Under the pieces are notes generated by a model that worked only from the letters and a program-made list of their open reading frames with translations, searched no databases and was not told the origin of the DNA. From assembly GCF_022865125.1 (NCBI RefSeq), contig NZ_CP094828.1:930001-994000 (forward strand): a stretch of DNA of 64,000 nt, given 5' to 3'. Below, piece after piece: positions 39,563 to 63,106 of the stretch (positions are counted from its first letter, which is position 1; the number at the start of each line of letters is the position of its first letter). The position numbers and the translations under genes are program-made. This DNA comes from Acuticoccus sp. I52.16.1 (GTDB lineage Bacteria > Pseudomonadota > Alphaproteobacteria > Rhizobiales > Amorphaceae).

Positions 39563-39943
39563 CTACTCGGAGAAGGTGGCGAGATAGGCGATGATGTCGG
39601 CCCGCTGTTCCTCGCGGCGCAGGCCGCCGAAGGCCATCTTCGTGCCCTTCACGGACTTGCGCGGCGATTCCAGGAACGAATCGAGCAACGCCTCGTCCCA
39701 CACTTTGCCTTCGCCGAACTCGACCATGCCCGGTGAATACTTGAACCCTTCCAGCGTCCCCGGCTGCCGGCCGATGACCCCGTTGAGCTGCGGGCCGATC
39801 TTGTTCTGAGCGCCCTCGCCGACCGCGTGGCAGGCCATGCACATCCGGAAGACCTTCTCACCGGCGGCCGGGTCCTGGGCCAGCGCCGGCGCGGCGGTGG
39901 CGAGGGTGACGGCGGCGGCCACCGCCAGCACGAGCTTTGTCAT
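39563..39943 (-). CDS. class I cytochrome c
   Basis: A 126-residue periplasmic cytochrome with a signal peptide ending at ALAQ (residue 23). Heme attachment is C35-x-x-C38-H39 (CMACH). The sixth ligand is probably the Met of KGTKMAFGGL. It is of the c2/c550 (mitochondrial-like) type. GGAGG precedes the ATG at 39943. It lies 160 bp downstream of the formaldehyde genes and could carry electrons from XoxG to the terminal oxidase. That link is inference from context. Confidence 0.9.
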   Translation of the reverse strand: MTKLVLAVAAAVTLATAAPALAQDPAAGEKVFRMCMACHAVGEGAQNKIGPQLNGVIGRQPGTLEGFKYSPGMVEFGEGKVWDEALLDSFLESPRKSVKGTKMAFGGLRREEQRADIIAYLATFSE

Positions 39944-40106
39944 TGCGTTCCTCCAAACTAGACGAGTTATTGTTTTAGAGCAGCCGCGGTCCGGCGCGAT
40001 ACGGCCGGCACGCATCCGATGGTCGTGATTGTCGCGAAATCGGGACGCGCCAGGCCGGCGCGACCGCCCGCGATCCCGGCACGCCCGGCATCCGTCATCG
40101 CGCCCG

Positions 40107-40946
40107 TCAGACGCCCAGGCGCTCGGCGTGCCAGGCGATGTGGTCGGGCATGAAGGTGGAGATGAAGTAGTAGGAGTGATCGTAGCCCGGCCGCATCCGC
40201 AGGGTGAGGTCGATGCCGGCGTCGGCGCAGGCTTTCGCCAGCAGCTCCGGCTTGAGCTGATCGGCGAGGAAATTGTCCGCCTCGCCCTGGTCGACGAGGA
40301 TGTCCTTCACGCGCGCCCCGTCCTCGATCAGCGCCACGGCGTCGTGCCGGCGCCATCGGGAGGTGTCGCCCCCAAGATAGGCGGGGAAAGCCTTCTGCCC
40401 CCAGGGCACCTGCGCCGGGGCCACGATGGGCGCGAAGGCGGAGACCGAGGCGAACCGCTCGGGATGGCGCAGCGCGATCGTCAACGCGCCATGTCCTCCC
40501 ATCGAATGACCGAAGATCCCCTGCCGCCCCAGGTCGGCGGGGACGTTCGCAGCCACCACCTCCGGCAGCTCCTCCTCGATATAGGTGCGCATCTTGAAGT
40601 GCGGCGAGAAGGGCGGCTGCGTCGCGTCGACGTAGAAGCCCGCGCCCTGGCCGAGATCGTAGGCCTCGTCATCGGCCACGCCCTCGCCGCGGGGGCTGGT
40701 ATCGGGGCACACGACGATGATGCCCGCCTCGGCCGCCGCCTTGCGATACTCGCCCTTCTCCATGACGTTGGCATGGGTGCACGTGAGCCCGGATAGGTAC
40801 CACAGCACCGGCCGCGGCCCGGCTTCCGCCTGCGGCGGCAGGTAGACGGCGAAGGTCATCTCCGTGCCGGTGGCGCGCGAGGTGTGCTTGGCGACGAGCT
40901 GCTGGCCGCCGTGCGCGGCGAAACGCGAGACGATGTCCATCGTCAT
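40107..40946 (-). CDS. fghA: S-formylglutathione hydrolase
   Basis: A 279-residue alpha/beta hydrolase. The nucleophile is S148 in GHSMGGHGALT; Asp and His are in VDQGEADNF and PGYDHSYYF. It has the human-ESD-like family features LWYLSGLTCTHANV and PDTSPRG. It hydrolyses S-formylglutathione to formate and glutathione, step two after class III alcohol dehydrogenase. Its ATG overlaps the upstream gene stop (ATGA), placing it in one operon with adhC. ATG at 40940 is an alternative start. Confidence 0.96.
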   Translation of the reverse strand: MTMDIVSRFAAHGGQQLVAKHTSRATGTEMTFAVYLPPQAEAGPRPVLWYLSGLTCTHANVMEKGEYRKAAAEAGIIVVCPDTSPRGEGVADDEAYDLGQGAGFYVDATQPPFSPHFKMRTYIEEELPEVVAANVPADLGRQGIFGHSMGGHGALTIALRHPERFASVSAFAPIVAPAQVPWGQKAFPAYLGGDTSRWRRHDAVALIEDGARVKDILVDQGEADNFLADQLKPELLAKACADAGIDLTLRMRPGYDHSYYFISTFMPDHIAWHAERLGV

Positions 40947-41350: not shown

Positions 41351-43777
<2,427 letters not shown>

Positions 43778-43831
43778 GCGAGCCTCCATTCTCTCTTGAT
43801 GCGCCCGCTGCGTGACGGGGTCGTTGGTCGC

Positions 43832-44815
43832 CTATTCCCACTCCAGCTCGGCATAGGCGGCGGTGACGTTGCGGCGGTGGAACGCGTCGACCAGCACCCA
43901 GCCGGCGGCCGGCTCCGGCGCATCGGCCACCGCACGCGCGAGCGGCGTCCCCTCCGCGATGGCGCGGCGCACCTCGGCGGCGACCCCCTCCAGATAGCGC
44001 CGCTGCGGGGCGAGCGCGGCCGGCCACGGAACCGCCGCCGGCCCGTGGCCCGGAACCACCCGCGTGGCGGAAAGCTCTGCCAGACGCGGGTGAACGGCCA
44101 GCCAGCCGGCGATGCTGCCATCCACCACAGGTAGATGATGCACGAAGACGAGGTCGCCGGCAAACAGCGTCCCGGTGGCGAGATCGAGCACGGTGAGGTC
44201 GTTGTCGGTGTGGGCGGTGGGCCAGGCGGTGAGCCGCAGCACGCGCCCGCCGAGGTCGATCTCGCCGCCTTCGGCGACGTCGCGGTCCGGCAGCACGATC
44301 TCCTCCGGCCCGGCGCCGGCGTCGCCCATCGCCAGCGAGGTGCTCGCGCGGTAGTGCCCGGCGCGCACCGCCAGCGCGCGGCCCAGCTTGGCGTGGGCGA
44401 AGAAGGCCGGGTCCGCCCCCTGCGGCCCGGCACCGCGAAAGGCGGCATTGCCGAAGGTGTGGTCGGGATGCATGTGGGTGTTGATCACGGCGAGGACCGG
44501 CAGCGCCGTCACCTCGCGTATCGCGGCCAGCAGCGCCCGCCCGATGGCGACGCTGCCGCCGGTGTCGATGACCGCCACGCCCTCGGCGCCGACGACGAAG
44601 CCGAGATTGGCGATGTCGCCCCGGTTGTCCGGTGCGGCGAGCGCCTCAGCCCCTTCGTGGACGTAGACGCCGGGGGCGATCTCGACGGTCGTCAGCGCGT
44701 CGCCGGCCGCCTCCCCGACCGCCCGCGGCGGCTGGGCGAGGACCTCCTGGTGCGCCTGGGCGAGCACCGTCACGGCCAGCAGCCCCAGGGCGAAGGCGGC
44801 CGGGGCCAGCCTCAT
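43832..44815 (-). CDS. quinoprotein relay system zinc metallohydrolase (SoxH-like)
   Basis: A 327-residue MBL-fold hydrolase with a signal peptide (residues 1-22). Zinc motif HMHPDH gives H114, H116, D118, H119; further ligands are in TAHTDNDL and VPGHGP. It is of the SoxH-like type associated with PQQ dehydrogenases. It probably acts on thiol conjugates carried by the SoxYZ-like protein encoded next. ATG at 44815 overlaps the pentapeptide gene stop (ATGA), indicating coupling. Confidence 0.9.
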   Translation of the reverse strand: MRLAPAAFALGLLAVTVLAQAHQEVLAQPPRAVGEAAGDALTTVEIAPGVYVHEGAEALAAPDNRGDIANLGFVVGAEGVAVIDTGGSVAIGRALLAAIREVTALPVLAVINTHMHPDHTFGNAAFRGAGPQGADPAFFAHAKLGRALAVRAGHYRASTSLAMGDAGAGPEEIVLPDRDVAEGGEIDLGGRVLRLTAWPTAHTDNDLTVLDLATGTLFAGDLVFVHHLPVVDGSIAGWLAVHPRLAELSATRVVPGHGPAAVPWPAALAPQRRYLEGVAAEVRRAIAEGTPLARAVADAPEPAAGWVLVDAFHRRNVTAAYAELEWE

Positions 44816-45732
44816 TTGCGCCGCACCCGGCCAAGACCGGTGGCGCCGGTCCAGTCGGCCTCCGCCTCGCCGATCACGTCCACCAGGCGGGCCGAGGCGA
44901 GCGCCGCACCGGCGAGGCGGGCGCCGGTGAGGGTCGCGCCGGTGAGGTCCGCACCGGAAAGATCGGCTCGGGTGAGGTCCGCCCCGCTCAGGTCCGCTCC
45001 CTTCAGCGAGGCGAAGGCGAAGTCGACGCGGTTGAGGTCGGCGCCGCTGAGGTCGGCCGCGTCGAGTCGCGCCGAGCGCAGGACCGCCCGCACCAACCCC
45101 ATCGACTGGTTCTTCATGTCCGCTCCCAGCACCGCGCCCCTCAGGTTCGCCTCTGTCAGGTCCGCGCCTGACAGGTCGGCGGTGATGCGCGCGCCGCTGA
45201 GGTTCGCCCGCACCAGGGCGGCCTTCTGCATCTGCGACGAGCGGAGGCTGGCGCCCGTCAGGTCGGAGCCGGTGAGGTCGGCCTCCATCAACCATGCCTG
45301 ATCGAGGATCGCGCCCGAGAGGTCGGCCCCGGAGAGCACGGCGCGGTTGAGGTAGGCCGCCCGCAGCCGCGCGCCCGGCAAGGCGAGGCCGCCGAGATCG
45401 AGCGTGGCGAGGCGCGCCTTGGTCAGTTCGGCCGGCCCGTGCGCCGCCGCCGCGACGACGGCCTCGCGCGTCATCGCCGGAACGGTCATCGCCTCGGACT
45501 CGAGGTCGACGTGCGCGAGGGGGGATTGCGCGCGCAGAGGCGCCACGGACGCCATGAGGACGCACAGCGCGACCGCGGCTAGCCCTCCCGCGCGCCTTTG
45601 GCAAGCCCCGCCTTTAGTCGCAATAGAACACCCCGGCGACGGTCGCGCGGCGGTGAGAAGAACAGACCATCGGCCTCTGCCGGTCGACATCGCAAGTCGC
45701 CTGTGGTCACATGCGGCGAAGTTATAGCGCAA
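44812..45732 (-). CDS. pentapeptide-repeat protein, periplasmic
   Basis: Up to 306 residues. Residues from about 110 to 290 are tandem A(D/N)LXX pentapeptides (DLSGADLNRVDFAFASLKGA and similar), forming a right-handed quadrilateral beta-helix. A hydrophobic segment GGLAAVALCVLMASVAPLRAQ (about 50-70) looks like a signal sequence but lies unusually far from both ATG candidates (45732, 45690), so the true start is uncertain. It is the first gene of the minus-strand set running to the SoxYZ gene and is divergent from xoxF. Role unknown. Confidence 0.82.
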   Translation of the reverse strand: MRYNFAACDHRRLAMSTGRGRWSVLLTAARPSPGCSIATKGGACQRRAGGLAAVALCVLMASVAPLRAQSPLAHVDLESEAMTVPAMTREAVVAAAAHGPAELTKARLATLDLGGLALPGARLRAAYLNRAVLSGADLSGAILDQAWLMEADLTGSDLTGASLRSSQMQKAALVRANLSGARITADLSGADLTEANLRGAVLGADMKNQSMGLVRAVLRSARLDAADLSGADLNRVDFAFASLKGADLSGADLTRADLSGADLTGATLTGARLAGAALASARLVDVIGEAEADWTGATGLGRVRRK

Positions 45733-45896
45733 GTGAAGTATTTGCGGACCAATCCTTTAGCAGCGGGACTTTGGTCGTATGCGCTGGAACGTTGTTCAGA
45801 CTTCGAATGGCATTGCAATCTCTGGCGAGATCATGATGGGATACCGCATCGAACCGCGGGGTCTCACTCGTGGGAAAAAACGCTAGGGAGGTGCTG

Positions 45897-47738
45897 ATGA
45901 AGCGATTGATCTTGACTTCGGCTTGCAGCGCGCTGGCCCTCGGCCTCGCCGCAACGGTGGCCGTCGCCAACGACAAGCTGACCGAAATGGAAGGCAACGC
46001 CGCCGACTGGGTGATGCCGACCGGAAACTACGCCAACTGGCGATATTCCGAGCTCGACCAGATCACCAAGGACAATGTCGGCCAGCTCCAGGTCGCCTGG
46101 ACCATGTCGACCGGCGTGCTGCGCGGCCACGAAGGCTCGCCGCTCGTCATCGGCAACATGATGTACTTCGCCACCCCGTTCCCCAACAACGTGTTCGCCC
46201 TGGACCTGTCCAAGGACGGCACGATCAAGTGGAAGTACGAGCCCAAGCAGGACCCCAACGTCATCGGCGTGATGTGCTGCGACACGGTGTATCGCGGCGT
46301 GTCCTACGCCCCGGCCAACGGTGACACCCCTGCCCTCGTCCTTCTCCAGCAGGCCGACACCACCCTCGTCGCCCTGAATGCCGAGGACGGCTCGGTCGTC
46401 TGGGAGGTCCAGAACGGCGACCCGACCAAGGGCGAGACGGCGACGATGGCGCCGATGGTCGTCAAGGACAAGGTCATCACCGGCATCTCCGGCGGCGAAT
46501 ACGGCGTCCAGGGCCACGTCACGGCCTACAGCCTCGCCGATGGCAGCCAGGCCTGGCGCGCCTTCTCCACCGGTCCCGACGATCAGACCCTGATGGACCC
46601 GGAGAACACGACCCACCTCGGCAAGCCGGTGGGCAAGGACTCCGGCACCGCCACCTGGGAAGGCGACCAGTGGAAGATCGGCGGCGGCACCACCTGGGGC
46701 TGGTACTCCTACGATCCCAAGCTCGACCTCGTCTATTACGGCACCGGCAACCCCTCCACCTGGAACCCCGCCCAGCGCCCCGGTGACAACCGCTGGTCGA
46801 TGACCATCTTCGCCCGCGATCCGGACGACGGCATGGCCAAGTGGGTCTACCAGATGACCCCGCACGACGAGTGGGACTTCGACGGCGTCAACGAGATGAT
46901 GCTCGCCGACCTCGAGTTCGACGGTCAGACCGTCCCCGCTCTCGTCCACCCCGACCGCAACGGCTTCACCTACACGATGAACCGCGAGACCGGTGAACTC
47001 CTCGTCGCCGAGAAGTTCGACCCGGCGGTGAACTGGGCCACCCACGTCGAGATGGACAAGAACAGCGACCAGTACGGTCGCCCGCAAGTCGTCTCCGACT
47101 ATTCGACCGAGCAGAACGGCGAAGACGTCAACACCACCGGCATCTGCCCGGCCGCGCTCGGAACCAAGGACCAGCAGCCCTCGGCCTACTCGCCGAAGAC
47201 GGGTCTATTCTACATCCCGACCAACCACGTCTGCATGGACTACGAGCCGTTCCGCGTCTCCTACACCGCGGGCCAGCCCTATGTCGGCGCGACGTTGTCC
47301 ATGTATCCCGCGCCCAACAGCCACGGCGGCATGGGCAACTTCATCGCCTGGGACGCGACGAAGGGCGAGATCGTGTGGTCGATCCCCGAGCAGTTCTCGG
47401 TGTGGTCGGGCGCTTTGGCGACGGCCGGCGACGTGGTCTTCTACGGCACGCTCGAAGGCTACCTGAAGGCGGTCGACATCGAGACCGGCGACGAGCTGTA
47501 CCGCTTCCGCACCCCGTCGGGCATCATCGGCAACGTGATGACCTACGAGCATGAGGGCAAGCAGTACGTGGCGGTGCTCTCGGGCATCGGCGGCTGGGCC
47601 GGCATCGGTCTGGCGGCCGGCCTCACCGACCCCAACGCGGGCCTCGGTGCCGTGGGCGGCTATGCGGGCCTGAAGCAGTACACCGACCTCGGCGGCCAGC
47701 TGACGGTGTTCGCCCTGCCCGACAGCGCGACGAAGTAA
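45897..47738 (+). CDS. xoxF: lanthanide-type PQQ-dependent methanol dehydrogenase XoxF
   Basis: A 613-residue periplasmic quinoprotein with signal peptide residues 1-24. Eight-bladed propeller with W-motifs. The vicinal disulfide is C127-C128 (VMCCDTV). Metal and catalytic residues are E201, N285, D327 and D329; D329 in [11 protein letters not shown] is the extra Asp that marks lanthanide enzymes, where calcium MxaF has Ala. GGGAGG precedes the ATG at 45897. No MxaI gene is present nearby, consistent with a Xox homodimer. It oxidises methanol to formaldehyde or formate and passes electrons to XoxG. Two hairpins follow the gene. Confidence 0.97.
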
Positions 47739-47743
47739 CTGGC

Positions 47744-47832: not shown

Positions 47833-47863
47833 CCACGCACATAGCGCTTAAAAGGTGCAACCT

Positions 47864-48376
47864 ATGATAAGACGCGTACTGATCGGGGCCGCCCTCATCG
47901 CTGTATCGACGGCTGCGTTCGCCGTTGGCCCCGGCGACCCCGCCTCCGTAGAGAATGTCGACGGCCGCAACTACGACGCCGACGGTGTTCCCACCTACAC
48001 GATCGCCGAAGACGGCACGGTCGACTGGCCCACCTACTCCGGCTTCCGCCGCTACCACGCGGAGTGCCACGTGTGCCACGGGCCGGACGGGATGGGGTCG
48101 AGCTACGCACCCGCGCTCGTCGAAAGCGCCGCCAACATCGACTATTACCAGTTCTACGAGGTGGTCGTGAACGGCAAGCAGGATGTCGGCACCGGGCAGG
48201 CCAACCAGGTCATGCCGGCGTTCGGCACCAACCCCAACGTCATGTGCTACCTGGACGACATCTACACCTACCTCCGGGCGCGCGCCCAGGGGGGCCTGCC
48301 GCGCGGCCGTCCGGCCAAGAAGGAGGCGAAGACCGATGCGTTCGTCGAGGCTGAGAATGCCTGCATGGGCGGCTGA
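47864..48376 (+). CDS. xoxG: methanol-metabolism c-type cytochrome XoxG
   Basis: A 170-residue periplasmic cytochrome, signal residues 1-22. The heme site is C68-x-x-C71-H72 (CHVCHGPDGMG). It contains NQVMPAFGTNPNVMCYLDDI with a Met ligand candidate and extra cysteines, as in the methanol-related family that accepts electrons from XoxF. ATG at 47864, downstream of AAAGG. The xoxJ start lies inside its 3' end (41-bp overlap). Confidence 0.93.
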   Translation: MIRRVLIGAALIAVSTAAFAVGPGDPASVENVDGRNYDADGVPTYTIAEDGTVDWPTYSGFRRYHAECHVCHGPDGMGSSYAPALVESAANIDYYQFYEVVVNGKQDVGTGQANQVMPAFGTNPNVMCYLDDIYTYLRARAQGGLPRGRPAKKEAKTDAFVEAENACMGG

Positions 48377-49876: not shown

Positions 49877-49915
49877 CCGCCCGGCGTCACGGCGATGCCG
49901 CGCGCGCCGGCCCCG

Positions 49916-50533: not shown

Positions 50534-50538
50534 GGCGG

Positions 50539-50967
50539 TCAGTCCGTCACGTTGAAGATCGCCTGCTGCGACTCGCCGGTGGTGCCGGGGATGCGCAACA
50601 CGAAGCGGCCGGGGCGGATCGGGATGAAGTCCATCTCCAACTCGCCCTCGTCGTCGAACTCGAAGGAGTCGATGCCGAGCGGGCGGATCTCGATGTCGTT
50701 GATGACGATCTCGTTGATCCACACGTTGCGGAAGAACTCCGCACCGGAGATGGCGAGCTCGGCCGAGCCGTCGGCCTCGATGGTGAGCTCGTAGAACTTG
50801 CCCGCCTTCAGCTCGTACGGCTTTTCCGCAAGTGGCTGGCCGGAGGAGAGTTTGATCGGCGGCAGCTCCTCCGCCCCGCCGGTGAGGAGACCGGCCTGAC
50901 CGAATGCGGGCCCGGCGGCGAGAGCGGCGGCGAGGCCGAGCGCAGCGGTCAATCGAAGTGCCTTCAT
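50539..50967 (-). CDS. cupredoxin-like periplasmic protein
   Basis: A 142-residue exported protein, signal residues 1-23. Beta-rich with the pattern PYELKAGKFYELTIEADGSA, then AEFFRNVWINEIVINDIEIR and the C-terminal RPGRFVLRIPG, as in cupredoxin folds. It lacks the Cys-His-Met copper ligands in the expected C-terminal loop, so copper binding is doubtful. Located between the beta-propeller gene and a helical protein gene in the quinoprotein set. Confidence 0.75.
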   Translation of the reverse strand: MKALRLTAALGLAAALAAGPAFGQAGLLTGGAEELPPIKLSSGQPLAEKPYELKAGKFYELTIEADGSAELAISGAEFFRNVWINEIVINDIEIRPLGIDSFEFDDEGELEMDFIPIRPGRFVLRIPGTTGESQQAIFNVTD

Positions 50968-50996: not shown

Positions 50997-51968
50997 TTAT
51001 TCGGGCCGTGCCACGACGCCCCAGGGGAACTGCCCCACCTGGACATTGTCGACGACTTCGCGCTTCGCGACGTCGATCACGGACACGTCGTTGGAAACGC
51101 CGTTGGTGGAAAAGATGAAATCCTGGTCCGGCGAGAAGCCGAGCTGCCAGACCCGCTGGCCGACCAGGAGATAATCGAGCACCTCGTAGGTCGCCGGGTC
51201 GATGACCGCGACGCGATTGGCCGGGCCGAGCGCCACGAACGCGACGGTCATGTCGTCGGAAATGCGGATCCCGACGGGTTGGATCGCCTCCGGGCGCAGG
51301 CCCGGGATCTCGAAGGTGATCTTGTGCGTCACCTTGCGTGTGTCGGTATCGATCACGCTCACCGTGCCGCCGATTTCGGACGAGACCCAGACCTCCGAGC
51401 CGTCCTTCTTGAACTCGGCGAAGCGGGGGCGCTGGTCGACGAGCACGTTGTCGGTGATCTCGTGCGTCTCGGTGTCGATGAAGTGGGCCATGTTCGTCGT
51501 CTCGGACGTGTTGACGATGAACTTGCCGTCGGGCGAGACGCCCATCCCCTCCGGCTCCACGCCGACCGGGATCTCGCTCACCATGGAGCGGCTCTTCAGG
51601 TCCACCACGGTGACGAGGTTGTCGTCCTCGTTGGCGATGTAGAGGTGGACGCCGTCCGGATGGAGCACGAAGAGCTCGGGGTCGGGGCCGGACGGCAGCG
51701 TATGGACACGCTCGAAGGTGTCCGTGTCGTAGACCTCGACGGTGTCGTCGTCGCCGACGGCCACCAGAAGGTGCTTGCCGTTCTCGGCGAGCGTGATGCC
51801 GCGGGGGCGCTGGCCGACGTCGATGGTGTCGGTCACCGCCATGGTCTCCGAGTCGATGACGGAGACGGTGTTCCCCTTCTCGTTGGAGACGAAGATCTTG
51901 TAGGCGGCGGCCTCGCCGACCGAGGCCATCAAGGCCACGATCGCGAGCCCGCTCAATAGCGTGCGCAT
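50997..51968 (-). CDS. PQQ-dependent catabolism-associated beta-propeller protein (YVTN)
   Basis: A 323-residue protein with signal residues 1-22 and about seven YVTN-type blades: KIFVSNEKGNTVSVIDSETM, LYIANEDDNLVTVVDLKS, VWVSSEIGGTVSVIDTDT and others. GGAGGAG precedes the ATG at 51968. Members of this family accompany PQQ alcohol dehydrogenase ABC genes; the role is unknown. It lacks PQQ-binding features. Confidence 0.92.
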   Translation of the reverse strand: MRTLLSGLAIVALMASVGEAAAYKIFVSNEKGNTVSVIDSETMAVTDTIDVGQRPRGITLAENGKHLLVAVGDDDTVEVYDTDTFERVHTLPSGPDPELFVLHPDGVHLYIANEDDNLVTVVDLKSRSMVSEIPVGVEPEGMGVSPDGKFIVNTSETTNMAHFIDTETHEITDNVLVDQRPRFAEFKKDGSEVWVSSEIGGTVSVIDTDTRKVTHKITFEIPGLRPEAIQPVGIRISDDMTVAFVALGPANRVAVIDPATYEVLDYLLVGQRVWQLGFSPDQDFIFSTNGVSNDVSVIDVAKREVVDNVQVGQFPWGVVARPE

Positions 51969-52077
51969 GCGCTCCTCCCTGTCGAAGCGTGATGAGGCCC
52001 GCGGCATCTGGTGCGCCGCTCCGGCCGGTGTGGCGCCGCCGGCCCCTCCTCGTGAAGGAGCGGTCCGGCGGCGAAGG

Positions 52078-53861: not shown

Positions 53862-54074
53862 ATGCCGATCATTCAACTCGTGGTCGCCGTCTGCCTCAAT
53901 GCGAATCCCTCGGCTTGCACCGAGGAGCGGATTTCGTTCCTGGAGAATACGACGCCCACGTCCTGCACAATGCGGGCCATGCCCTACCTCGCCCAATGGG
54001 CCGGGGAGCATCCGCAGTATAAGATCATGAGCTGGAAGTGCAGCTATCCGAACGTGGACGAGCAGGACGCCTGA
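53862..54074 (+). CDS. small Cys-containing protein
   Basis: A 70-residue protein, ATG 53862 with AAAGGGAA upstream. Cysteines C11, C19, C35 and C60 are spaced as in small alphaproteobacterial proteins with SCTMRAMPYLAQWA and a final Trp-Lys-Cys (MSWKC). It has no clear signal peptide, but the first 12 residues are hydrophobic. It precedes the ABC exporter genes, and its 3' end overlaps their proposed GTG start by 37 bp. Function unknown. Confidence 0.72.
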   Translation: MPIIQLVVAVCLNANPSACTEERISFLENTTPTSCTMRAMPYLAQWAGEHPQYKIMSWKCSYPNVDEQDA

Positions 54075-54856
54075 CACCCGCCCAGCCTGCGCTGACGGTG
54101 GATGAGGTTCATCACGCCTACGGACGCAAGGCGGCGCTGAAGGGCGTTTCCTTCACCATCGAGCCGGGGCGGTTCACTGCCCTGCTCGGACCCAACGGAG
54201 CCGGCAAGACGACGCTGTTCGGTCTCCTGACGCGGCTGATCGCGCTGCAATCCGGCACGATCCGGATCGAGGGGGTCGACATCGGCGCCGGCGCGGCCGC
54301 GCTTGCACCGCTCGGCCTGGTGTTCCAGCAACCGACGCTCGACCTCGACCTGAGCGTGCGGCAGAACCTCGCCTACTTCGCCGCCCTGCGCGGCATCGGC
54401 CGGCGCGAGGCGAAGGCGCGCATCGCCGCCGAGTTGACGCGCCTCGAGATGGCGGACCGGGCGCGCGAGAGTGTGCGCGCCCTCAACGGCGGCCACCGAC
54501 GCCGCGTGGAGCTGGCGCGGGCCCTGCTGCACGAGCCCAGCGTCCTCCTGCTCGACGAGCCGACCGTCGGCCTCGACGTCGAGGCGCGGTCGCGGATCTG
54601 CCGGCATGTCCACGCCCTGGCGCACGAGCGCGGGCTGGCCGTCCTGTGGTCGACCCACCTGATCGACGAGGTGTGGCCGGACGACGACCTCGTCGTGCTG
54701 GGCGAGGGCGCGGTGCTGGCGACCGGCACCGGCCGCGACATCGTCGCCCGGACCGGTGCGGCGGACCTTGCCGAGGCGTTCACCCGGCTGACCGGCGTCC
54801 CGTCCACCCGCGCGCCGTCGCCGGGTGCCGCGCTCGAACCGGCGGGCCGCGCATGA
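54038..54856 (+). CDS. ABC transporter ATPase, PQQ-dependent alcohol system type
   Basis: Up to 272 residues from GTG 54038; a later start is possible since the conserved part begins at LTVDEVHHAYGRKAALKGVS. Walker A GPNGAGKTT, Walker B VLLLDEPTVGLD, and a signature region reading LNGGHRRRVELARALL, where LSGGQ is altered to LNGGH. It pairs with the ABC-2 permease that follows (ATGA overlap). Substrate unknown. Confidence 0.9.
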   Translation: MQLSERGRAGRLTPAQPALTVDEVHHAYGRKAALKGVSFTIEPGRFTALLGPNGAGKTTLFGLLTRLIALQSGTIRIEGVDIGAGAAALAPLGLVFQQPTLDLDLSVRQNLAYFAALRGIGRREAKARIAAELTRLEMADRARESVRALNGGHRRRVELARALLHEPSVLLLDEPTVGLDVEARSRICRHVHALAHERGLAVLWSTHLIDEVWPDDDLVVLGEGAVLATGTGRDIVARTGAADLAEAFTRLTGVPSTRAPSPGAALEPAGRA

Positions 54857-55791: not shown

Positions 55792-55880
55792 ACGAACGGC
55801 CGCCGGCCCGCCGCCGCGGCGACGAAGAGACGCTCCAACGCGTCCATCAATGAGCGCCACCCGCGCTCGGGGAGTGAGAC

Positions 55881-56888
55881 ATGACACGCTTCGGCCGATC
55901 GCTGATCGCCCTGGCCGGCACGCTCGCCGTGCTCGGCTCGTGGCTGCCGTCCGGCCCCGCCGGCGCGGACGAACTGCCCACCGTGCGGCTCGCGCTGCTC
56001 AAGTTCGGCACCGTCAACTGGGAGGCCGACACCATCGTGCGCGAAGGCCTCGACACCGCGAACGGCTTCCACCTCGAGATCGTCCCCTTCGCCGGCGGCA
56101 ACGCCACTCAGGTCGCGCTGCTGTCGGGCGATGTCCACGTGTCGACGGGGGACTGGCTCTTCGCCTCGCGCCAGCGGGCGATGGGGGCGGCGATGACCTT
56201 CGTGCCTTACTCCACCTCCATGGGCGGGGTGGTGGCCCGGTGCGACGCGGGCTACGAAGGACTGGCCGACCTCGCCGGCAAGACCATCGGCGTCGCCGGC
56301 GGCCCGCTCGACAAGAGCTGGCTGATGATCCGCGGCATGGCCGAGGGCGAACTCGGCCTCGATATCGCCGGCGAGACGCGCCAGGTCTTCGGCGCGCCGC
56401 CGCTGCTGGCCGAGAAGCTGCGGCAGGGCGAGCTCGATGCCGCGCTCAACTACTGGCACTACAACGCGCGGCTGGAGACGGAGGGTTACTGCGAGATCGT
56501 CTCCGCCCAGGACGCCGCGGAGGCGCTGGGTGCGCGCGGCGAGCTCTCGGCCATCGGCTACATCTTCGACGAGGAGTGGGCGGACGCCAACCCGCGCGTC
56601 GCAGCCGGATTCGTCGCCGCCTCGCACGCCGCCAAGGCGTTGCTGGCAAAGGACGACGCCGCGTGGGAGCCGTTGCGCGAAGCGATGAACGCCGAGAACG
56701 ACGCGGTCTTCGCGCAATTGGTGAAGCGCTGGCGCGAGGGCGTCCCGACGAGCCCGCCGGCCCAGGAAGAGGCCGACACCGCCGCCGTCTACGCCTACCT
56801 CGCGAAGGTCGGCGGGGAGGCGCTGGTGGGTCCGGCACGCACGATGGCGCCGGGGACCTTCTGGTCCGGCCTCGCCGCCGCCGACTGA
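55881..56888 (+). CDS. NitT/TauT-type ABC substrate-binding protein
   Basis: A 335-residue periplasmic binding protein, signal peptide ending at PAGA (about residue 29). The domain begins TVRLALLKFGTVNWEADTIV and contains GGNATQVALLSGDVHVSTGD, as in the SsuA/TauA/ThiY-like group. GGGGAG precedes the ATG. It opens a three-gene importer with the permease and ATPase genes downstream. In the XoxF setting the ligand may be linked to methanol metabolism, but this is inference. Confidence 0.9.
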   Translation: MTRFGRSLIALAGTLAVLGSWLPSGPAGADELPTVRLALLKFGTVNWEADTIVREGLDTANGFHLEIVPFAGGNATQVALLSGDVHVSTGDWLFASRQRAMGAAMTFVPYSTSMGGVVARCDAGYEGLADLAGKTIGVAGGPLDKSWLMIRGMAEGELGLDIAGETRQVFGAPPLLAEKLRQGELDAALNYWHYNARLETEGYCEIVSAQDAAEALGARGELSAIGYIFDEEWADANPRVAAGFVAASHAAKALLAKDDAAWEPLREAMNAENDAVFAQLVKRWREGVPTSPPAQEEADTAAVYAYLAKVGGEALVGPARTMAPGTFWSGLAAAD

Positions 56889-56892
56889 GCCG

Positions 56893-57744
56893 ATGACCGA
56901 TACCACCGACACCACGCCGGCGGCGAGCGGGCCCGTCTCCACCGGCCGCCCCCGTGCCGCGATTACCGTCCGGCCGGCGCGCCGGGCATGGCTGGGCGGC
57001 CGGGCGATCGCCTCCGCCCTGTCGGTCGCGGCCTTCTTCGCGGTATGGCTGATGGGGACGTGGTGGATGGGGCCGCGCCTGTGTCCGGGCCCGGTCGCGG
57101 TGTTCCAGTTCATCGTCGCCGAGACGGCCTCGGGCGAGCTGCCGACGCAGCTCGGCATCACGCTGGCGCGCGTGGCCGCGGCGTTCGTCATCGCCATGGC
57201 CATCGGCCTGGCGGCGGGGCTCGTAATGGGCCGTTCGCCTCTCGCCAACACCATCGGCGAGCCGTGGCTGATCCTGCTCCTCAATGCGCCGGCGCTGATC
57301 GTCATCGTGCTGGCTTATATCTGGATCGGCCTCACCGAATCGGCGGCCATCCTGGCGGTGGCGATCAACAAGATCCCCAACGTCACGGTCACCATCCGCG
57401 AAGGCGCGCGGGCGACGGATCCGCAGTTGATGGAGATGGCCAGGATCTACCGCTTCTCTCGCGCCAAGACGCTGCGCAACGTCACGTTGCCGCAGCTCCA
57501 GCCCTACGTCGCCGCCGCCGCACGCTCGGGACTGGCGCTGATCTGGAAGATCGTCCTCGTGGTCGAGCTGCTCGGCCGCTCCAACGGCGTCGGCTTCCAG
57601 ATCCACCTTTATTTCCAGATGTTCGACGTGCGCGCCATCCTCGGCTACACGCTGGCCTTCGTCGCGATCATGCTGGTGGTGGAGTTCGCGCTGGTGCAGC
57701 CGCTGGAGGCGCGGGCCAACCGCTGGCGCCCGAGGCCGGCCTGA
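56893..57744 (+). CDS. NitT/TauT-type ABC permease
   Basis: A 283-residue permease with six predicted spans. The region RVAAAFVIAMAIGLAAGLVM and the coupling loop REGARATDPQLMEMARIYRF (EAA-like) are typical of TauC/SsuC. Separated by 4 bp from the binding protein gene and by 1 bp from the ATPase gene, so clearly one operon. Confidence 0.9.
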   Translation: MTDTTDTTPAASGPVSTGRPRAAITVRPARRAWLGGRAIASALSVAAFFAVWLMGTWWMGPRLCPGPVAVFQFIVAETASGELPTQLGITLARVAAAFVIAMAIGLAAGLVMGRSPLANTIGEPWLILLLNAPALIVIVLAYIWIGLTESAAILAVAINKIPNVTVTIREGARATDPQLMEMARIYRFSRAKTLRNVTLPQLQPYVAAAARSGLALIWKIVLVVELLGRSNGVGFQIHLYFQMFDVRAILGYTLAFVAIMLVVEFALVQPLEARANRWRPRPA

Positions 57745-57745
57745 G

Positions 57746-58495
57746 ATGCAGGCGACGAGTGCCCCCGCACCGCCCTTCGCGGTCGACATCGCCGGCAAGT
57801 CCCACCGCGGTGCGGACGGGGCCGAGGTCGCCGTGCTCGACCACGTGTCGTTCACCCTGCCGCGCAACACCTTCACCGCGCTGATCGGCCCCTCCGGCTG
57901 CGGTAAGACGACGACGCTGCGCATCCTCACCGGGCTCGACACCGCCTACACCGGCACGGTCGACCCGGCGCTCGCCGAGGCGCGCATCGCCGTCGCCTTC
58001 CAGGAGCCCCGCCTCCTCCCCTGGCGCACGGTGGCCGACAATGTCGCCCTCGCGCTGCCGGACGGGGCGGACAAGGCGGCCCGCGTCGCCGAGGCGCTGG
58101 CGGACGTCGGCCTCGCGGGGTTGGAGGCCCGTTTCCCGGCGGAACTGTCGCTGGGGCAGGCGCGACGGGCGGCCCTCGCCCGCGCCTTCGCCGTGCGGCC
58201 GGACGTCCTCTATCTGGACGAACCCTTCGTGTCGCTCGACGAGGCGAGTGCGCAGCACCTTCGTGCGCTGCTCCTCGCCTTGTGGCAGCGAGAGCGCGTC
58301 ACCGTCCTGATGGTGACGCACAACGTGCGCGAGGCGGTTCAGCTCGCCGACCGGATCGTCCTGATGAGCGCGCGCCCGGCGCAGGTCGTCGCCGCCATTG
58401 ACGTGCCGCTGCCGAGGGACCAACGAGATCCGGCCGCGGTGACGGAATTTGCCGAGGCCCTCTCGCGGCGGCATCCGACCATAGTCGCGCTCTAA
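57746..58495 (+). CDS. NitT/TauT-type ABC ATPase
   Basis: A 249-residue ATPase. Walker A GPSGCGKTTT, Q-loop VAFQEPRLLPW, signature LSLGQARRAALARAF with one residue change from LSGGQ, Walker B VLYLDEPFVSLD, and switch His in MVTHNVREAV. It powers the importer encoded upstream. It is followed after 94 bp by the formate dehydrogenase genes. Confidence 0.93.
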   Translation: MQATSAPAPPFAVDIAGKSHRGADGAEVAVLDHVSFTLPRNTFTALIGPSGCGKTTTLRILTGLDTAYTGTVDPALAEARIAVAFQEPRLLPWRTVADNVALALPDGADKAARVAEALADVGLAGLEARFPAELSLGQARRAALARAFAVRPDVLYLDEPFVSLDEASAQHLRALLLALWQRERVTVLMVTHNVREAVQLADRIVLMSARPAQVVAAIDVPLPRDQRDPAAVTEFAEALSRRHPTIVAL

Positions 58496-58589
58496 CTTTG
58501 GCCGTCAGGCTTTACCGTTCGAGGCCTATGATCAACACCACGGCCCATACGCCAGCATCGCCATCGCCCGCGATGACCGCGCAGCTCAA

Positions 58590-60305
58590 GTGACGGACAT
58601 GGACGGACGTTCAGCGGACCATCCGCCCGGGCAGGGGCCGCGCTCCCGCCCCGGCCGGCGCAATCCCGCCACCCCGAAGGGCCGCCAGGTCGACGAGGCG
58701 ACCGTCGAGGACGTGCGCGCGATCCTGCGCCCGATGCCCCCGCGGCGTGACCTCTTGATCGAGGCGCTGCACAAGGTGCAGGACCGCATCGGCTACCTGC
58801 ACGCGCGCCACCTCGCCGCCATCGCCGAGATCTTCCGCCTGTCGCAAGCCGAGGTGCACTCGGTCGCCAGCTTCTACCACCACTTCGACATCGTGAAGGA
58901 GGGCGCGCTCCCGCCGCCGCCGGTGACGCTGCGCATCTGCGACGGGATCGCCTGCCAGATGGCCGGCGCCGCGGCGCTGACCGAGGCGATGACCCGCGCC
59001 AGTGACCCGGCGCGCGTGCGCGTGCAGTCCGTCCCCTGCATCGGCCGGTGCGACGGGGCACCCGCGGCCCACATCGGCCGCCGCGCCGTCGACCGGGCGA
59101 CGCCCGAGCTTCTCACCGCGGGCCTCGCCGGCCCCACCACCCCCGTCGTCGCCGACTACGAGCGGCTGGACGCCTACCGTGCGAGCGGCGGCTACCGCGC
59201 GCTCGCCAAGGTGCTGGCCGGCGAGATCGACGCGGACGCGGCCATCGCGACGATGTCCGACGCCAAGTTGCGGGGGCTGGGCGGGGCGGGTTTCCCCGCG
59301 GGGCGCAAGTGGGGCTTCGTGCGCGGTTATCCCGGCCCGCGGCTGATGACCATCAACGGGGACGAGGGCGAGCCCGGCACCTTCAAGGACCGCTACTGGC
59401 TGGAGCGCCACCCGCACCGCATGTTCGAGGGGGCGCTGATCGCCGCCAAAATCGTCGAGGCGGAGCGCATCTATCTCTACATGCGCGACGAGTATCAGGG
59501 CGTCCTGGAGATCCTGCGGCGCGAGATCGCCGCGCTCGACGCGGCCGGGCTGACCCATGTGCCGATCGAGCTGCGGCGCGGCGCGGGCGCCTACATCTGC
59601 GGCGAAGAGTCGGCGATGATCGAGTCGATCGAGGGCAAGCGCGGCCTGCCGCGGCACCGCCCGCCGTACATCGCCGAGGTGGGTCTCTTCGGCCGCCCGA
59701 CGCTCAACCACAACATCGAGACGCTGTTGTGGATCCCCACCATCCTCAACGACGGCGCCGCCGCCTTCGCCTCGCAGGGATGGGACGAGAACCACGCGGG
59801 CCTGCGCTCCTTCTCGGTGTCGGGCCGCGTCGCCGAGCCCGGCGTGAAGCTGGCACCCGCCGGCATCCCGGTCCGCCGTCTCATCGCCGACTATTGCGGC
59901 GGTATGGCGCCAGGGCACGTCTTCAAGGCCTTCTTGCCGGGCGGCGCCTCCGGCGGCATCCTGCCGGCCTCGATGGGCGACCTGCCGCTCGACTTCGGCA
60001 CCTTTGAGAAGCACGGCGGGTTCGTCGGCAGCCATGCGGTGGTGATCCTGTCGGACCAGGATTCGGTGCACGACGTCGCCGTCAACCTGATGCGCTTCTT
60101 CCGCAACGAGAGCTGCGGCCAGTGCACCCCCTGCCGCTCGGGGACCGACAAGATGGTGCGCATGCTGGAAGCCGGCGGCCTCGACCCGTCGCTGGCGCAG
60201 GATCTGATGGTGGTGATGCGCGACAGCTCGATCTGCGGTCTCGGCCAGGCCGCGTCCAACTCGGTCGCCCACCTGTTGCAGCATTTTCCGGAGGACGTCC
60301 TATGA
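58590..60305 (+). CDS. fdh1B: NAD-dependent formate dehydrogenase beta subunit (NuoE-NuoF fusion)
   Basis: A 571-residue diaphorase subunit starting at GTG 58590 or ATG 58599. Residues 36-180 are NuoE-like with 2Fe-2S cysteines C117, C122, C150 and C154. Residues 190-571 are NuoF-like: FMN site GLGGAGFPAGRKWG (229-242), NADH site GDEGEPGTFKDR (257-268) and 4Fe-4S cysteines C509, C512, C515 and C549. Length matches FDH1 beta of Methylorubrum (572 residues by my recollection). It transfers electrons from the alpha subunit to NAD+. The stop overlaps the alpha start (ATGA). Confidence 0.95.
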   Translation: MTDMDGRSADHPPGQGPRSRPGRRNPATPKGRQVDEATVEDVRAILRPMPPRRDLLIEALHKVQDRIGYLHARHLAAIAEIFRLSQAEVHSVASFYHHFDIVKEGALPPPPVTLRICDGIACQMAGAAALTEAMTRASDPARVRVQSVPCIGRCDGAPAAHIGRRAVDRATPELLTAGLAGPTTPVVADYERLDAYRASGGYRALAKVLAGEIDADAAIATMSDAKLRGLGGAGFPAGRKWGFVRGYPGPRLMTINGDEGEPGTFKDRYWLERHPHRMFEGALIAAKIVEAERIYLYMRDEYQGVLEILRREIAALDAAGLTHVPIELRRGAGAYICGEESAMIESIEGKRGLPRHRPPYIAEVGLFGRPTLNHNIETLLWIPTILNDGAAAFASQGWDENHAGLRSFSVSGRVAEPGVKLAPAGIPVRRLIADYCGGMAPGHVFKAFLPGGASGGILPASMGDLPLDFGTFEKHGGFVGSHAVVILSDQDSVHDVAVNLMRFFRNESCGQCTPCRSGTDKMVRMLEAGGLDPSLAQDLMVVMRDSSICGLGQAASNSVAHLLQHFPEDVL

Positions 60306-63106
60306 ACGCGCCTTTGACGGACCTGAAGCCCATCCCCTTCACGCTCGACGGCGAAGAGGTCGAGGCGCTGCCCGGCGAGACGATCTGGGAGGTCGCGACG
60401 CGCCTCGGCAAGTCGATCCCGCATCTGTGCCACCGCCCCAAGCCCGGCTACGCGCCGGACGGCAACTGCCGCGCCTGCATGGTCGAGGTCGAGGGCGAGC
60501 GCACGCTCACCGCCTCGTGCGTGCGCCGCCCGGCCGCGGGAATGGTCGTCGCCTCCACCGGCGAGCGGGTCGAGAAGAACCGCGCCCTGGTGTTCGAGCT
60601 TCTCGCCTCCGACATGCCGGACCGCGCCGCCAGCCCCGACCCGGACGCCGCCTTCTGGACCCAGGCGGCCCTGACCGAGGTCGGCGACCTGCGCCGCTTC
60701 CCCTCCGCGCGCCCCGGCGCCGGCCAGGCGATCCCGGTCGAGAGCATCTTCCGTGACAACTCGCACCCGTCGATCGCGGTGAACCTCGACGCGTGCATCG
60801 CCTGCAACCTTTGCGAACGGGCGTGCGTCGAGGTGCAGGCGAACGACGTCATCGGCATGATGGAGCGCGGCATGGGCGCGCTGCCGGCGTTCGACGTGCA
60901 CGACCCGATGGGCCACTCCACCTGCGTCGCCTGTGGCGAGTGCGTGCAGGCCTGCCCCACCGGCGCCCTAATGGAACGCACCGTCCTCGACGCGGACGCC
61001 ACCCACCGCGCGGTAGTCGCCGACGAGGTGGTGAACAGCGTCTGCCCGTTCTGCGGCGTCGGCTGCCAGACCGAGGTTTCGGTCAAGGACAACCGCATCA
61101 TCAAGGTGGACGGGCGCGACGGTCCGGCCAACCACAACCGCCTGTGCGTGAAAGGCCGCTTCGGGTTCGACTACGTCCTCTCTCCCGAGCGGCTGACCAA
61201 ACCCCTCGTCCGCCGCGACGACGCGCCCAAGACCGCCGACGCCGACATGACCTTCGCGGACATCCCCAAGGTGTTCCGCGAGGCCACCTGGGACGAGGCG
61301 CTGGAGCGCGCGGCGGCCGGCTTCACCGCGATCCGCGATGCCGACGGCGGCGGCGCGCTGTGCGGCTTCGGCTCGGCCAAGGGCACCAACGAGGAGGCCT
61401 ACCTCTTCCAGAAGCTCATCCGCCAGGGGTTCGGCACCAACAACGTCGACCACTGCACGCGGCTGTGCCACGCATCCTCCGTCGCGGCGCTGATGGAGGG
61501 GGTCGGCTCCGGCGCGGTCTCGGCGCCGTTCACCGCCGTCGACGACGCCGACTGCATCATCATCATCGGCGCGCGGCCGGCGCAGAACCACCCCGTCGCG
61601 GCGACCTTCTTCAAGGCGGCGGCCAAGCGCGGCGCCAAGCTGATCGTCATGGATCCGCGCCACCAGGGGCTGATGCGCTACGCCTCGCACCCGGTCATCT
61701 TCACCCCCGGCCGCGACGTCGCTCTCCTCAACGCGATGCTCCACGTGATCGTCACCGAGGACCTCGTCGACCGGCAGTATATCCAGGCCAACGTCGACGG
61801 GTTCGAGGCACTCGCCGCCAAGGTGGCCGACTTTTCGCCCGAGGCGATGGAGCCGGTGTGCGGCGTCCCGGCCGAGACCATCCGCGACATCGCCCGCACC
61901 TACGCCACCGCCGAGCGGTCGATCATCTTCTGGGGCATGGGCGTCTCGCAGCACGTCCACGGGACCGACAATTCGCGCGCCCTCATCGCGCTGGCGCTGG
62001 TGACCGGCCACGTCGGCCGCGAGGGCACCGGCCTGCACCCGCTGCGCGGGCAGAACAACGTGCAGGGCGCGTCGGACGCGGGCCTCATCCCGATGCTCTA
62101 TCCGGACTACATCTCGGTCGAGGATCCGGACGTGCGCGCCCACTACGAGGACGCCTGGGGCCGCACGCTGGACCCCGCCAAGGGCCTCACCGTGGTGGAG
62201 ATCATGGACGCGGTGCACGCCGGCGCGATCCGCGGCATGTACGTCATGGGCGAGAATCCGGCGATGTCGGACCCGGACCAGCACCACGCCCGCGCCGCCC
62301 TCGCGCATCTCGACCATCTCGTCGTGCAGGACATCTTCCTGACCGAGACGGCCTGGTTCGCCGACGTGATCCTCCCCGCCTCGGCCCAGGCCGAGAAGTG
62401 GGGCACCACCACCAACACCAACCGCCAGGTGCAGATGAACCGCCCCGCCATCGCGCCCCCCGGCGAGGCGCGGCAGGACTGGGAGCTGATCGTGGCGCTG
62501 GCGCACGGCGTCGGCCTCGATTGGCGATACGGCGGCGTCGACGAGGTGTACGCCGAGATGGCGAGCCACATGCGCTCGCTCGACAACATCACCTGGGCGC
62601 GGATCGACGCCGAGCACGCCGTCACCTACCCCTGCGCCGGGCCGGACCAGCCGGGTGCCGACATCATCTTCCGCGAGGCCTTCCCCACCCCGTCGGGCCG
62701 GGCCAAGGTCGTGCCGACCGACCTCGTCCCGCCCGACGAGATGCCGGACGCGGACTACCCGCTGGTCCTCACCACCGGGCGGCTGCTGGAGCATTGGCAC
62801 ACCGGGGCGATGACCCGCCGGTCCGCCGCGCTGGAGGCGCAGGAGCCGGTGCCGATCGTCGCCATGCACCCGCGCGACATCGAGGGCGGCGGCCTCCGGC
62901 CCGGGCAGAAGGTGCGCGTCGAGACCCGGCGCGGCGCCATCTCGCTGACCCTGCGGGCCGACCGGGACGTCACCCGCGGGATGATCTTCATCCCGTTCTG
63001 CTACGGCGAGGCGCCGGCCAACTTCCTGACGAACCCGCAGCTCGACCCGTACGGCAAGATCCCGGAGTTCAAGTTCTGCGCGGCGCGGCTGAGCGCGATC
63101 GACTGA
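60302..63106 (+). CDS. fdh1A: formate dehydrogenase alpha subunit, Mo/W bis-MGD
   Basis: A 934-residue subunit. The N-terminal NuoG-like part has 2Fe-2S cysteines C43, C56, C59 and C73, then two 4Fe-4S sets (C165, C168, C171, C175; C208, C211, C214, C218). The molybdopterin domain has 4Fe-4S cysteines C248, C251, C255 and C282, and the metal ligand is C389 in RLCHASSV, so it is a Cys rather than selenocysteine enzyme. No separate gamma or delta (FdsG/FdsD) gene is adjacent, which fits the FDH1 type, where tungsten is used in the best-studied case. It oxidises formate to CO2, the last step of the pathway in this island. Confidence 0.96.
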   Translation: MNAPLTDLKPIPFTLDGEEVEALPGETIWEVATRLGKSIPHLCHRPKPGYAPDGNCRACMVEVEGERTLTASCVRRPAAGMVVASTGERVEKNRALVFELLASDMPDRAASPDPDAAFWTQAALTEVGDLRRFPSARPGAGQAIPVESIFRDNSHPSIAVNLDACIACNLCERACVEVQANDVIGMMERGMGALPAFDVHDPMGHSTCVACGECVQACPTGALMERTVLDADATHRAVVADEVVNSVCPFCGVGCQTEVSVKDNRIIKVDGRDGPANHNRLCVKGRFGFDYVLSPERLTKPLVRRDDAPKTADADMTFADIPKVFREATWDEALERAAAGFTAIRDADGGGALCGFGSAKGTNEEAYLFQKLIRQGFGTNNVDHCTRLCHASSVAALMEGVGSGAVSAPFTAVDDADCIIIIGARPAQNHPVAATFFKAAAKRGAKLIVMDPRHQGLMRYASHPVIFTPGRDVALLNAMLHVIVTEDLVDRQYIQANVDGFEALAAKVADFSPEAMEPVCGVPAETIRDIARTYATAERSIIFWGMGVSQHVHGTDNSRALIALALVTGHVGREGTGLHPLRGQNNVQGASDAGLIPMLYPDYISVEDPDVRAHYEDAWGRTLDPAKGLTVVEIMDAVHAGAIRGMYVMGENPAMSDPDQHHARAALAHLDHLVVQDIFLTETAWFADVILPASAQAEKWGTTTNTNRQVQMNRPAIAPPGEARQDWELIVALAHGVGLDWRYGGVDEVYAEMASHMRSLDNITWARIDAEHAVTYPCAGPDQPGADIIFREAFPTPSGRAKVVPTDLVPPDEMPDADYPLVLTTGRLLEHWHTGAMTRRSAALEAQEPVPIVAMHPRDIEGGGLRPGQKVRVETRRGAISLTLRADRDVTRGMIFIPFCYGEAPANFLTNPQLDPYGKIPEFKFCAARLSAID

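What the first reader, a model, noticed from the sequence alone, without database searches (positions are those of the whole stretch)
39563..63106. Contiguous methanol-to-CO2 oxidation island built on XoxF
One 23.5-kb stretch encodes lanthanide-type methanol dehydrogenase with XoxG and XoxJ, glutathione-linked formaldehyde oxidation (adhC, fghA), an extra cytochrome c, a Mo/W NAD formate dehydrogenase and many quinoprotein-associated genes of unknown role. In several model methylotrophs these steps are scattered, so the linkage gives a compact set of candidates for accessory factors. Seen directly: gene order and motifs. Inferred: that they work together.
Basis: partly seen in the sequence, partly recalled or inferred. 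Interest (0 to 1): 0.75.

Follow-up and report, generated by a model that had tools for sequence, protein, structure and literature searches.

The report
Lanthanide methanol-to-CO2 oxidation gene island
A stretch of about 23 neighbouring genes encodes rare-earth-dependent oxidation of methanol all the way to CO2, together with likely importers for the rare-earth metal and for the enzyme's PQQ cofactor; the clustering is largely a known pattern, but this version adds formate dehydrogenase, recurs in a distant bacterium, and points to one unknown protein that seems to go with the methanol enzyme alone.

Summary
In detail: 39563-63106 holds a cytochrome c gene, fghA, adhC, lanthanide-type xoxFGJ and an NAD formate dehydrogenase closest to a tungsten enzyme. 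The 'unknown' genes mostly resolve into a PedA1A2BC/Lut-type lanthanide transporter, a PqqT-type PQQ importer (43% identity) and the SoxYZ/SoxH/CXXCW set. Such clustering is published for Sinorhizobium meliloti (PMC12628762), so the linkage itself is not new. This variant adds fdhBA. Nearly the same order recurs in a congener (G003) and in Palleronia marisminoris of another order, whose XoxF groups with this clade, suggesting horizontal transfer; a second congener (G007) has it split between the xox and lut blocks. No Fae and no canonical RuBisCO was found, so the published XoxF-Calvin-cycle pathway is not supported; energy gain is likelier. One lead remains: a 122-aa four-cysteine secreted protein near XoxF in 33 of 42 loci and in 0 of 38 loci without XoxF. 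Verdict: new variant of a known kind.

The parts
39563..39943 (-). cytochrome c-550-like, secreted
   Evidence: PF00034, NF043008 below cut-off; same place in G003, G007, Palleronia
40107..40946 (-). fghA, S-formylglutathione hydrolase
   Evidence: TIGR02821
41350..42462 (-). adhC, S-(hydroxymethyl)glutathione dehydrogenase
   Evidence: TIGR02818
42571..42939 (+). orf133 (122 aa from its likely start): secreted, helical, four conserved Cys; XoxF-specific neighbour, no known family
   Evidence: no Pfam match at E<=0.1, no NCBIfam match at E<=0.001; alignments A3, A6; 33/42 XoxF loci vs 0/38 others; no PDB fold match at E<=0.001
42956..43789 (-). quinoprotein-associated SoxYZ-like carrier
   Evidence: TIGR04557
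43832..44815 (-). quinoprotein relay zinc metallohydrolase (SoxH-like); start read from the ORF by eye
   Evidence: TIGR04559
44812..45687 (-). pentapeptide-repeat protein; no hit in the G003, G007 or Palleronia islands
   Evidence: NF052603 below cut-off; no tblastn hit there
45897..47738 (+). xoxF, lanthanide-type methanol dehydrogenase
   Evidence: TIGR03075; best PDB match XoxF 6oc5/6oc6, WDFDG kept
47864..48376 (+). xoxG-type cytochrome c
   Evidence: TIGR03874
48336..49235 (+). xoxJ, periplasmic binding-protein-like; start approximate
   Evidence: TIGR03871
49232..49876 (+). PQQ-dependent catabolism-associated CXXCW (rhodanese-like) protein
   Evidence: TIGR03865
49916..50533 (-). secreted 205-aa protein; follows lutF in Paracoccus and Phyllobacterium, so LutG position (inference)
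   Evidence: tblastn in S. meliloti, Paracoccus, Phyllobacterium
50539..50967 (-). secreted 142-aa protein; follows the beta-propeller gene in relatives (LutC position, inference)
   Evidence: alignment A7
50997..51971 (-). YVTN beta-propeller, PedA2-type
   Evidence: TIGR03866
52078..53304 (-). LutA/PedA1-type ABC substrate-binding protein
   Evidence: TIGR03863
53862..54074 (+). orf76: 70-aa conserved gene at the head of the transporter operon; no hit in Palleronia
   Evidence: alignment A1; 36 of 80 loci; absent
54038..54856 (+). LutE/PedB-type ABC ATPase (start uncertain)
   Evidence: TIGR03864
54964..55791 (+). LutF/PedC-type ABC permease (start uncertain)
   Evidence: TIGR03861
55881..56888 (+). 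PqqT-type PQQ-binding protein of an ABC importer
   Evidence: phmmer 9b1u E 3e-72; model pLDDT 92.9; Foldseek to 9ooz/9b1u/9b1v 43% id, TM by target length 0.90-0.91
56893..57744 (+). permease of the PqqT-type importer
   Evidence: PF00528
57746..58495 (+). ATPase of the PqqT-type importer
   Evidence: PF00005
58590..60305 (+). fdhB, fused gamma/beta subunit of NAD formate dehydrogenase (start uncertain)
   Evidence: PF01257, PF01512, PF10589
60302..63106 (+). fdhA, closest to a tungsten-containing formate dehydrogenase
   Evidence: TIGR01591; best PDB 7vw6/7e5z

Best explanation
A self-contained, probably mobile module for lanthanide-dependent oxidation of methanol to CO2. [quoted passage not shown] formaldehyde is taken to formate through glutathione by AdhC and FghA; FdhAB oxidises formate to CO2 and makes NADH. 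The island also brings the cofactor supply: the LutA/PedA1-PedA2-LutEF set imports lanthanide, and the PqqT-type triad binds and imports PQQ. SoxYZ-like, SoxH-like, CXXCW and orf133 proteins probably mature or protect the quinoprotein (inferred). With no Fae and no canonical RuBisCO found, it most likely serves energy gain or detoxification rather than Calvin-cycle methylotrophy. Shown here: gene content, order, homology, recurrence. Inferred: substrates, co-regulation, electron path, physiological role.
For: Family assignments; XoxF nearest 6oc5; PqqT match by sequence and fold; FDH match. Nearly the same order in G003 and Palleronia; most of the same parts in S. meliloti, Phyllobacterium and Paracoccus. 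Of 397 genomes of the order, the PqqT-type protein in 128, lutA in 132, both in 115. Plus-strand genes from orf76 to fdhA are separated by -37 to 107 bases. PqqE elsewhere in the genome, Fae not found, three PF00016 hits all best to OiaX (67, 88). Passages: PedA1A2BC needed for PedH-dependent growth at low La3+ (PMC6839425); lut mutants (PMC7391723); PqqT binds PQQ with Kd 50 nM (PMC12124388, PMC12828617).
Against: No expression data. G007 carries the two halves on separate contigs, so function may not need contiguity. G000, G003 and G007 each have a second adhC-fghA pair elsewhere, so the island copy need not be the only formaldehyde route. Co-occurrence counts are not corrected for kinship. 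OiaX matches are below that model's cut-off (406-462 of 700). Serine and RuMP cycles, Gfa, LutH and lanmodulin were not searched for in the rest of this genome.
Confidence: 0.8

Rival explanations
1. A full methylotrophy island of the published XoxF-Calvin cycle type, with assimilation encoded elsewhere.
For: Gene set matches the S. meliloti cluster, where this pathway was shown (PMC12628762).
Against: Only OiaX-like RuBisCO homologues in a 97% complete genome.
Confidence: 0.1
2. The second ABC triad imports something other than PQQ (sulfonate, thiamine precursor), its fold being shared by many such binding proteins.
For: NCBIfam gives only weak taurine/SsuA hits; Pfam PF09084; 7 of 80 relatives lie without any of the quinoprotein markers counted, five of them on loci under 14 kb; three of 13 lutA-less loci show no PQQ-type neighbour.
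Against: PqqT is by far the best match by sequence (E 3e-72 against 5e-7 for the next) and fold; an invariant GG-x-x-DKSW stretch; recurrence beside PQQ enzymes, also non-XoxF ones.
Confidence: 0.1
3. Adjacency is incidental: two independent blocks (xox-glutathione and lut-pqqT-fdh) that happen to be neighbours.
For: Split between CXXCW and the lut block in G007; fdhBA beside adhC-fghA without xox in G005; FDH linkage in 1 of 80 loci.
Against: Same gene order across the junction in G003, Palleronia and Lutibaculum.
Confidence: 0.2

Closest known systems
S. meliloti pSymB XoxF-GSH-Ln uptake-CBB-PQQ region (28.5 kb; PMC12628762)
   Same: orf133, soxYZ, soxH, adhC, fghA, cytochrome c, xoxFGJ, CXXCW, lutA, beta-propeller, orf142, PqqT-type triad and lutEF all matched in strain RCAM1750
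   Different: There gfa, CBB and pqq genes follow and no FDH is in the 37-kb stretch seen; here fdhBA follows and canonical RuBisCO is not found
P. putida ped cluster with PedA1A2BC
   Same: Ln ABC transporter, SoxYZ/SoxH-like, rhodanese, pentapeptide genes (PMC12997753)
   Different: PedH/PedE alcohol dehydrogenases; no XoxF or C1 genes in its gene table
M. extorquens xox1 and lut clusters (PMC7391723)
   Same: xoxFGJ; an ABC transporter of the lut kind
   Different: xox (p1740-1742) and lut (p1778-1787) are apart there; lutH and lanM in the lut cluster, not seen in this island
PqqT (PDB 9b1u, 9b1v, 9ooz)
   Same: 43% identity, same fold
   Different: here inside the xox-lut-fdh island; PQQ binding untested
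Tungsten formate dehydrogenase FDH1 (PDB 7vw6; organism M. extorquens recalled)
   Same: best match of FdhA; fused FdhB
   Different: metal untested

Membership tests
XoxF methanol dehydrogenase | closest to XoxF, with the extra Asp (WDFDG) | tested here: met
   6oc5/6oc6 1032 bits and XoxF 6dam 849, against 686 for the next entry (4tqo, methanol dehydrogenase large subunit) and 659 for 1h4i/1w6s; WDFDG aligned
XoxF methanol dehydrogenase | lanthanide-dependent activity | not testable with these tools
   needs enzyme assay
PedA1A2BC/Lut lanthanide importer | binding protein, beta-propeller, ATPase, permease of the four matching families | tested here: met
   TIGR03863, 03866, 03864, 03861 all over cut-off
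PedA1A2BC/Lut lanthanide importer | lutH TonB receptor and lanmodulin in the cluster (M. extorquens form) | tested here: not met
   no such match among the ORFs scanned in 39563-63106; the rest of the genome was not searched; no homologue of that receptor in P. putida either (PMC6839425)
PqqT-type PQQ importer | binding protein homologous to PqqT over its length, with permease and ATPase | tested here: met
PqqT-type PQQ importer | Lys of the PQQ site (PqqT K142) | tested here: inconclusive
   K145 of the window protein is invariant in 60 sequences and aligns to K115 of the 9b1u chain; that this is K142 rests on an assumed 27-residue offset
PqqT-type PQQ importer | binds PQQ | not testable with these tools
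   needs binding assay
XoxF-CBB pathway | form I/II RuBisCO | tested here: not met
   three PF00016 hits in G000, all best to OiaX; genome 97% complete
H4MPT formaldehyde oxidation | Fae | tested here: not met
   PF08714: 0 matches in G000
Glutathione-linked formaldehyde oxidation | adhC and fghA | tested here: met
   Gfa not tested

The most novel reading that the evidence does not exclude
The island is a horizontally moving plug-in that gives a heterotroph complete lanthanide-dependent methanol-to-CO2 energy metabolism without any C1 assimilation, bringing its own metal and cofactor importers, and orf133 is a dedicated, undescribed XoxF-specific maturation or assembly factor, for example a thiol- or metal-handling periplasmic partner.
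Probability: 0.3. Interest if true: 0.6.

Novelty: new variant of a known kind. Interest (0 to 1): 0.4.

Why it matters
It turns a list of unknowns into a short set of tests: two importers get likely substrates, and small conserved genes (orf133 above all, then orf76) remain as candidates for XoxF accessory factors. PqqT-type proteins and lutA occur together in 115 of 397 genomes of the order, which suggests that PQQ uptake often goes with lanthanide alcohol oxidation. The Palleronia case suggests that a whole methanol-to-CO2 module can move between orders. If no assimilation exists, the strain would be a case of methanol as pure energy source.

Tried and rejected
Considered and rejected: sulfonate or thiamine transport for the second ABC triad (PqqT matched far better). 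Strictly lanthanide-linked role of that triad: of 13 genomes with it but no lutA hit, 9 have a PQQ-type or GSDH-type dehydrogenase near it (L147, L149, L150, L151, L152, L153, L155, L156, L158; in L147 the GSDH gene is 8 kb away but a PQQ dehydrogenase is closer), one contig is only 3.6 kb (L148), and three show none with the queries used (L154, L157, L159). L153 and L158 also have lutEF or xoxFGJ, so their lutA may have been missed. That the GSDH (PF07995) genes use PQQ is not shown. In one search two of six extra query ORFs (from L024, L001) were wrong frames; I ignore their hits. A pentapeptide (PedD-like) role: no hit in G003, G007 or Palleronia. Promoter/terminator scan of 44700-58700 was uninformative (0 promoters, 0.7 expected; 6 terminators, 5.0 expected). 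orf133 fold search: 75 matches at E<=10, none at E<=0.001. LutA profile in PDB: one weak hit. My script label 'lutD_prop' is the PedA2-type beta-propeller, by position LutB rather than LutD.

54 of the 80 are at least 20 kb. Bit-score thresholds for a neighbour being 'present' were set by me before counting. For alignment A5 I used 59 of 78 clean ORFs (78 of 80 loci) plus the window. The XoxF tree used 54 of 86 loci plus the window (L068 left out because L165 holds the same gene); for the AU tests 9 of 55 rows were dropped (other PQQ dehydrogenases under 40% identity). The Rhodobacterales grouping was chosen after seeing the tree. orf133 (E<=1e-10) and lutA (E<=1e-60) plasmid counts used different limits.
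Full report
Observation. The window (70% G+C) carries about 23 genes between 39563 and 63106. On the minus strand: cytochrome c-550-like, fghA, adhC, a SoxYZ-like carrier, a SoxH-like zinc metallohydrolase and a pentapeptide-repeat gene; orf133 lies on the plus strand between adhC and soxYZ. On the plus strand: xoxF, xoxG, xoxJ and a CXXCW gene. Then, minus: two small secreted proteins, a beta-propeller and an ABC binding protein; and, plus: orf76, an ABC ATPase and permease, a second ABC triad, and fdhB-fdhA.

What the unknowns are. The binding protein, beta-propeller, ATPase and permease (50997-53304 minus, 54038-55791 plus) match the four NCBIfam models TIGR03863, 03866, 03864 and 03861 over cut-off. 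By description these correspond to PedA1, PedA2, PedB and PedC of P. putida (gene table in PMC12997753, passages). Deletion of those four raised the La3+ need for PedH-dependent growth about 100-fold, and the paper reports them as similar to the M. extorquens transporter (PMC6839425, passages; lut mutants in PMC7391723, passages). So this block is most likely the lanthanide importer.

The second ABC triad (55881-58495) had only weak sulfonate/taurine hits. A profile of 60 relatives found PqqT structures at E 2.5e-104; the single protein found 9b1u at E 3e-72, the next unrelated entry being 5e-7. The AlphaFold model (pLDDT 92.9) matches 9ooz, 9b1u and 9b1v at 43% identity. PqqT is a periplasmic PQQ-binding protein with Kd 50 nM (PMC12124388 and PMC12828617, passages; the original papers were not seen). 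I therefore read the triad as a PQQ importer; binding is not tested.

Recurrence. In 397 genomes of the order, the PqqT-type protein was in 128 (E<=1e-30), lutA in 132 (E<=1e-60), both in 115 and neither in 252 (odds ratio 131, kinship not corrected). Among the 80 best relatives in named genomes, a true XoxF (60% identity or more) lies near in 42, another PQQ dehydrogenase in 14 and none in 24; 7 of 80 have none of the quinoprotein markers counted. Thirteen genomes have the triad without a lutA hit; their neighbourhoods are given under Tried and rejected, three of them against this reading.

orf133. It is a 122-aa secreted protein with four conserved cysteines, no Pfam or NCBIfam family, a helical model (pLDDT 82) and no PDB fold match. 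It lies in 33 of 42 true-XoxF loci and 0 of 38 others. xoxG and xoxJ show the same contrast (41 of 42; 0 of 38), whereas soxYZ, soxH and CXXCW also lie in loci with other PQQ dehydrogenases (7, 9 and 9 of 14). On plasmids, a set not chosen by PqqT, it is in 117 records and lutA in 120, with 75 Sinorhizobium records in each. This makes it a XoxF-specific candidate, by association only. It has no name, so no literature search could aim at it.

Gene order in relatives. Of eight genomes of the genus (G000-G007), three have this xoxF at 90% identity or more. G003 has the whole order, without the pentapeptide gene. G007 has ilvC to CXXCW on contig C23 and the lut-pqqT-fdh block on contig C12, both well inside long contigs. 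G005 has fdhBA next to adhC-fghA without xox. Palleronia marisminoris (Rhodobacterales) has cytochrome c, adhC, orf133, soxYZ, soxH, xoxFGJ, CXXCW, the two small genes, beta-propeller, lutA, lutEF, the triad and fdhBA in the same order. Exceptions there: only a 33-aa match to fghA, no pentapeptide gene, and no orf76; a different open frame lies between lutA and lutE (by eye). Lutibaculum shares the part from xoxF to the triad. S. meliloti, Phyllobacterium and Paracoccus alcaliphilus share most parts in other orders. fdhA is near the triad in 1 of 80 loci, that one being Palleronia.

Which order the window is in: G018, of the same order as the window, carries a contig identical to one titled 'Hyphomicrobiales bacterium' (L148 and L128), so the window is most likely Hyphomicrobiales by the submitter's title.

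Transfer. In a XoxF tree Palleronia groups with Lutibaculum and the window's genus (SH-aLRT 100), apart from other Rhodobacterales. Forcing the five Rhodobacterales rows together is rejected (p-AU 1.65e-42; without Paracoccus 1e-4). I chose this test after seeing the tree. It suggests horizontal transfer; direction is open, and only XoxF was tested.

Metabolic setting. The genome has pqqE and no Fae match. Three RuBisCO-family hits all score best with OiaX (406-462 bits, cut-off 700) and far below the RuBisCO cut-offs. So the published XoxF-CBB pathway (PMC12628762, abstract and passages) is not supported here. The serine and RuMP cycles were not tested. A second adhC-fghA pair lies at 3.33 Mb.

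Verdict. The clustering of XoxF with glutathione-linked genes and lanthanide uptake is known. The variant with an FDH, its recurrence across orders, the PqqT-type importer inside it and the XoxF-specific orf133 go beyond what I saw in print. Literature searches: in an open-licence library only; most listed papers were seen as listings, those cited as passages.

Noticed in passing
window 16088-16137 (-): Guanidine-II (mini-ykkC) riboswitch match, 34.8 bits against a gathering score of 32, just upstream of a small, by eye membrane-protein gene (15575-16069, -).
   Followed up: no
L162, L163, L164 (G000 C1 4.81, 1.60 and 2.32 Mb): Three RuBisCO-like proteins closest to OiaX; beside those of L162 and L164 lie frames that look like sugar-acid kinases (by eye, recalled).
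   Followed up: partly
G000 C1:3333682-3335886: A second adhC-fghA pair, 86% and 78% identical; G003 and G007 also have one.
   Followed up: partly
L147 (G004), L149, L150, L152, L155, L156: PqqT-type triad lies near genes with a glucose/sorbosone dehydrogenase domain (PF07995), in genomes without a lutA hit.
   Followed up: partly
G397 C12:293241-293339 (L165, Palleronia): fghA gives only a short C-terminal match in the otherwise nearly complete island; the 437 bases up to adhC were not examined.
   Followed up: no
G397 C12, end of L165 to start of L166 (Palleronia): A secreted-looking open frame of about 170 aa lies between lutA and lutE where the window has orf76; S. meliloti has a DUF3280 gene beside lutA. 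Whether they are related was not tested.
   Followed up: no
window 44812-45687 (-): Pentapeptide-repeat gene between soxH and xoxF gives no hit at that place in G003 and G007.
   Followed up: partly
window 35471-37312 (-): Protein with RTX-like calcium-binding repeats (matches far below cut-off).
   Followed up: no
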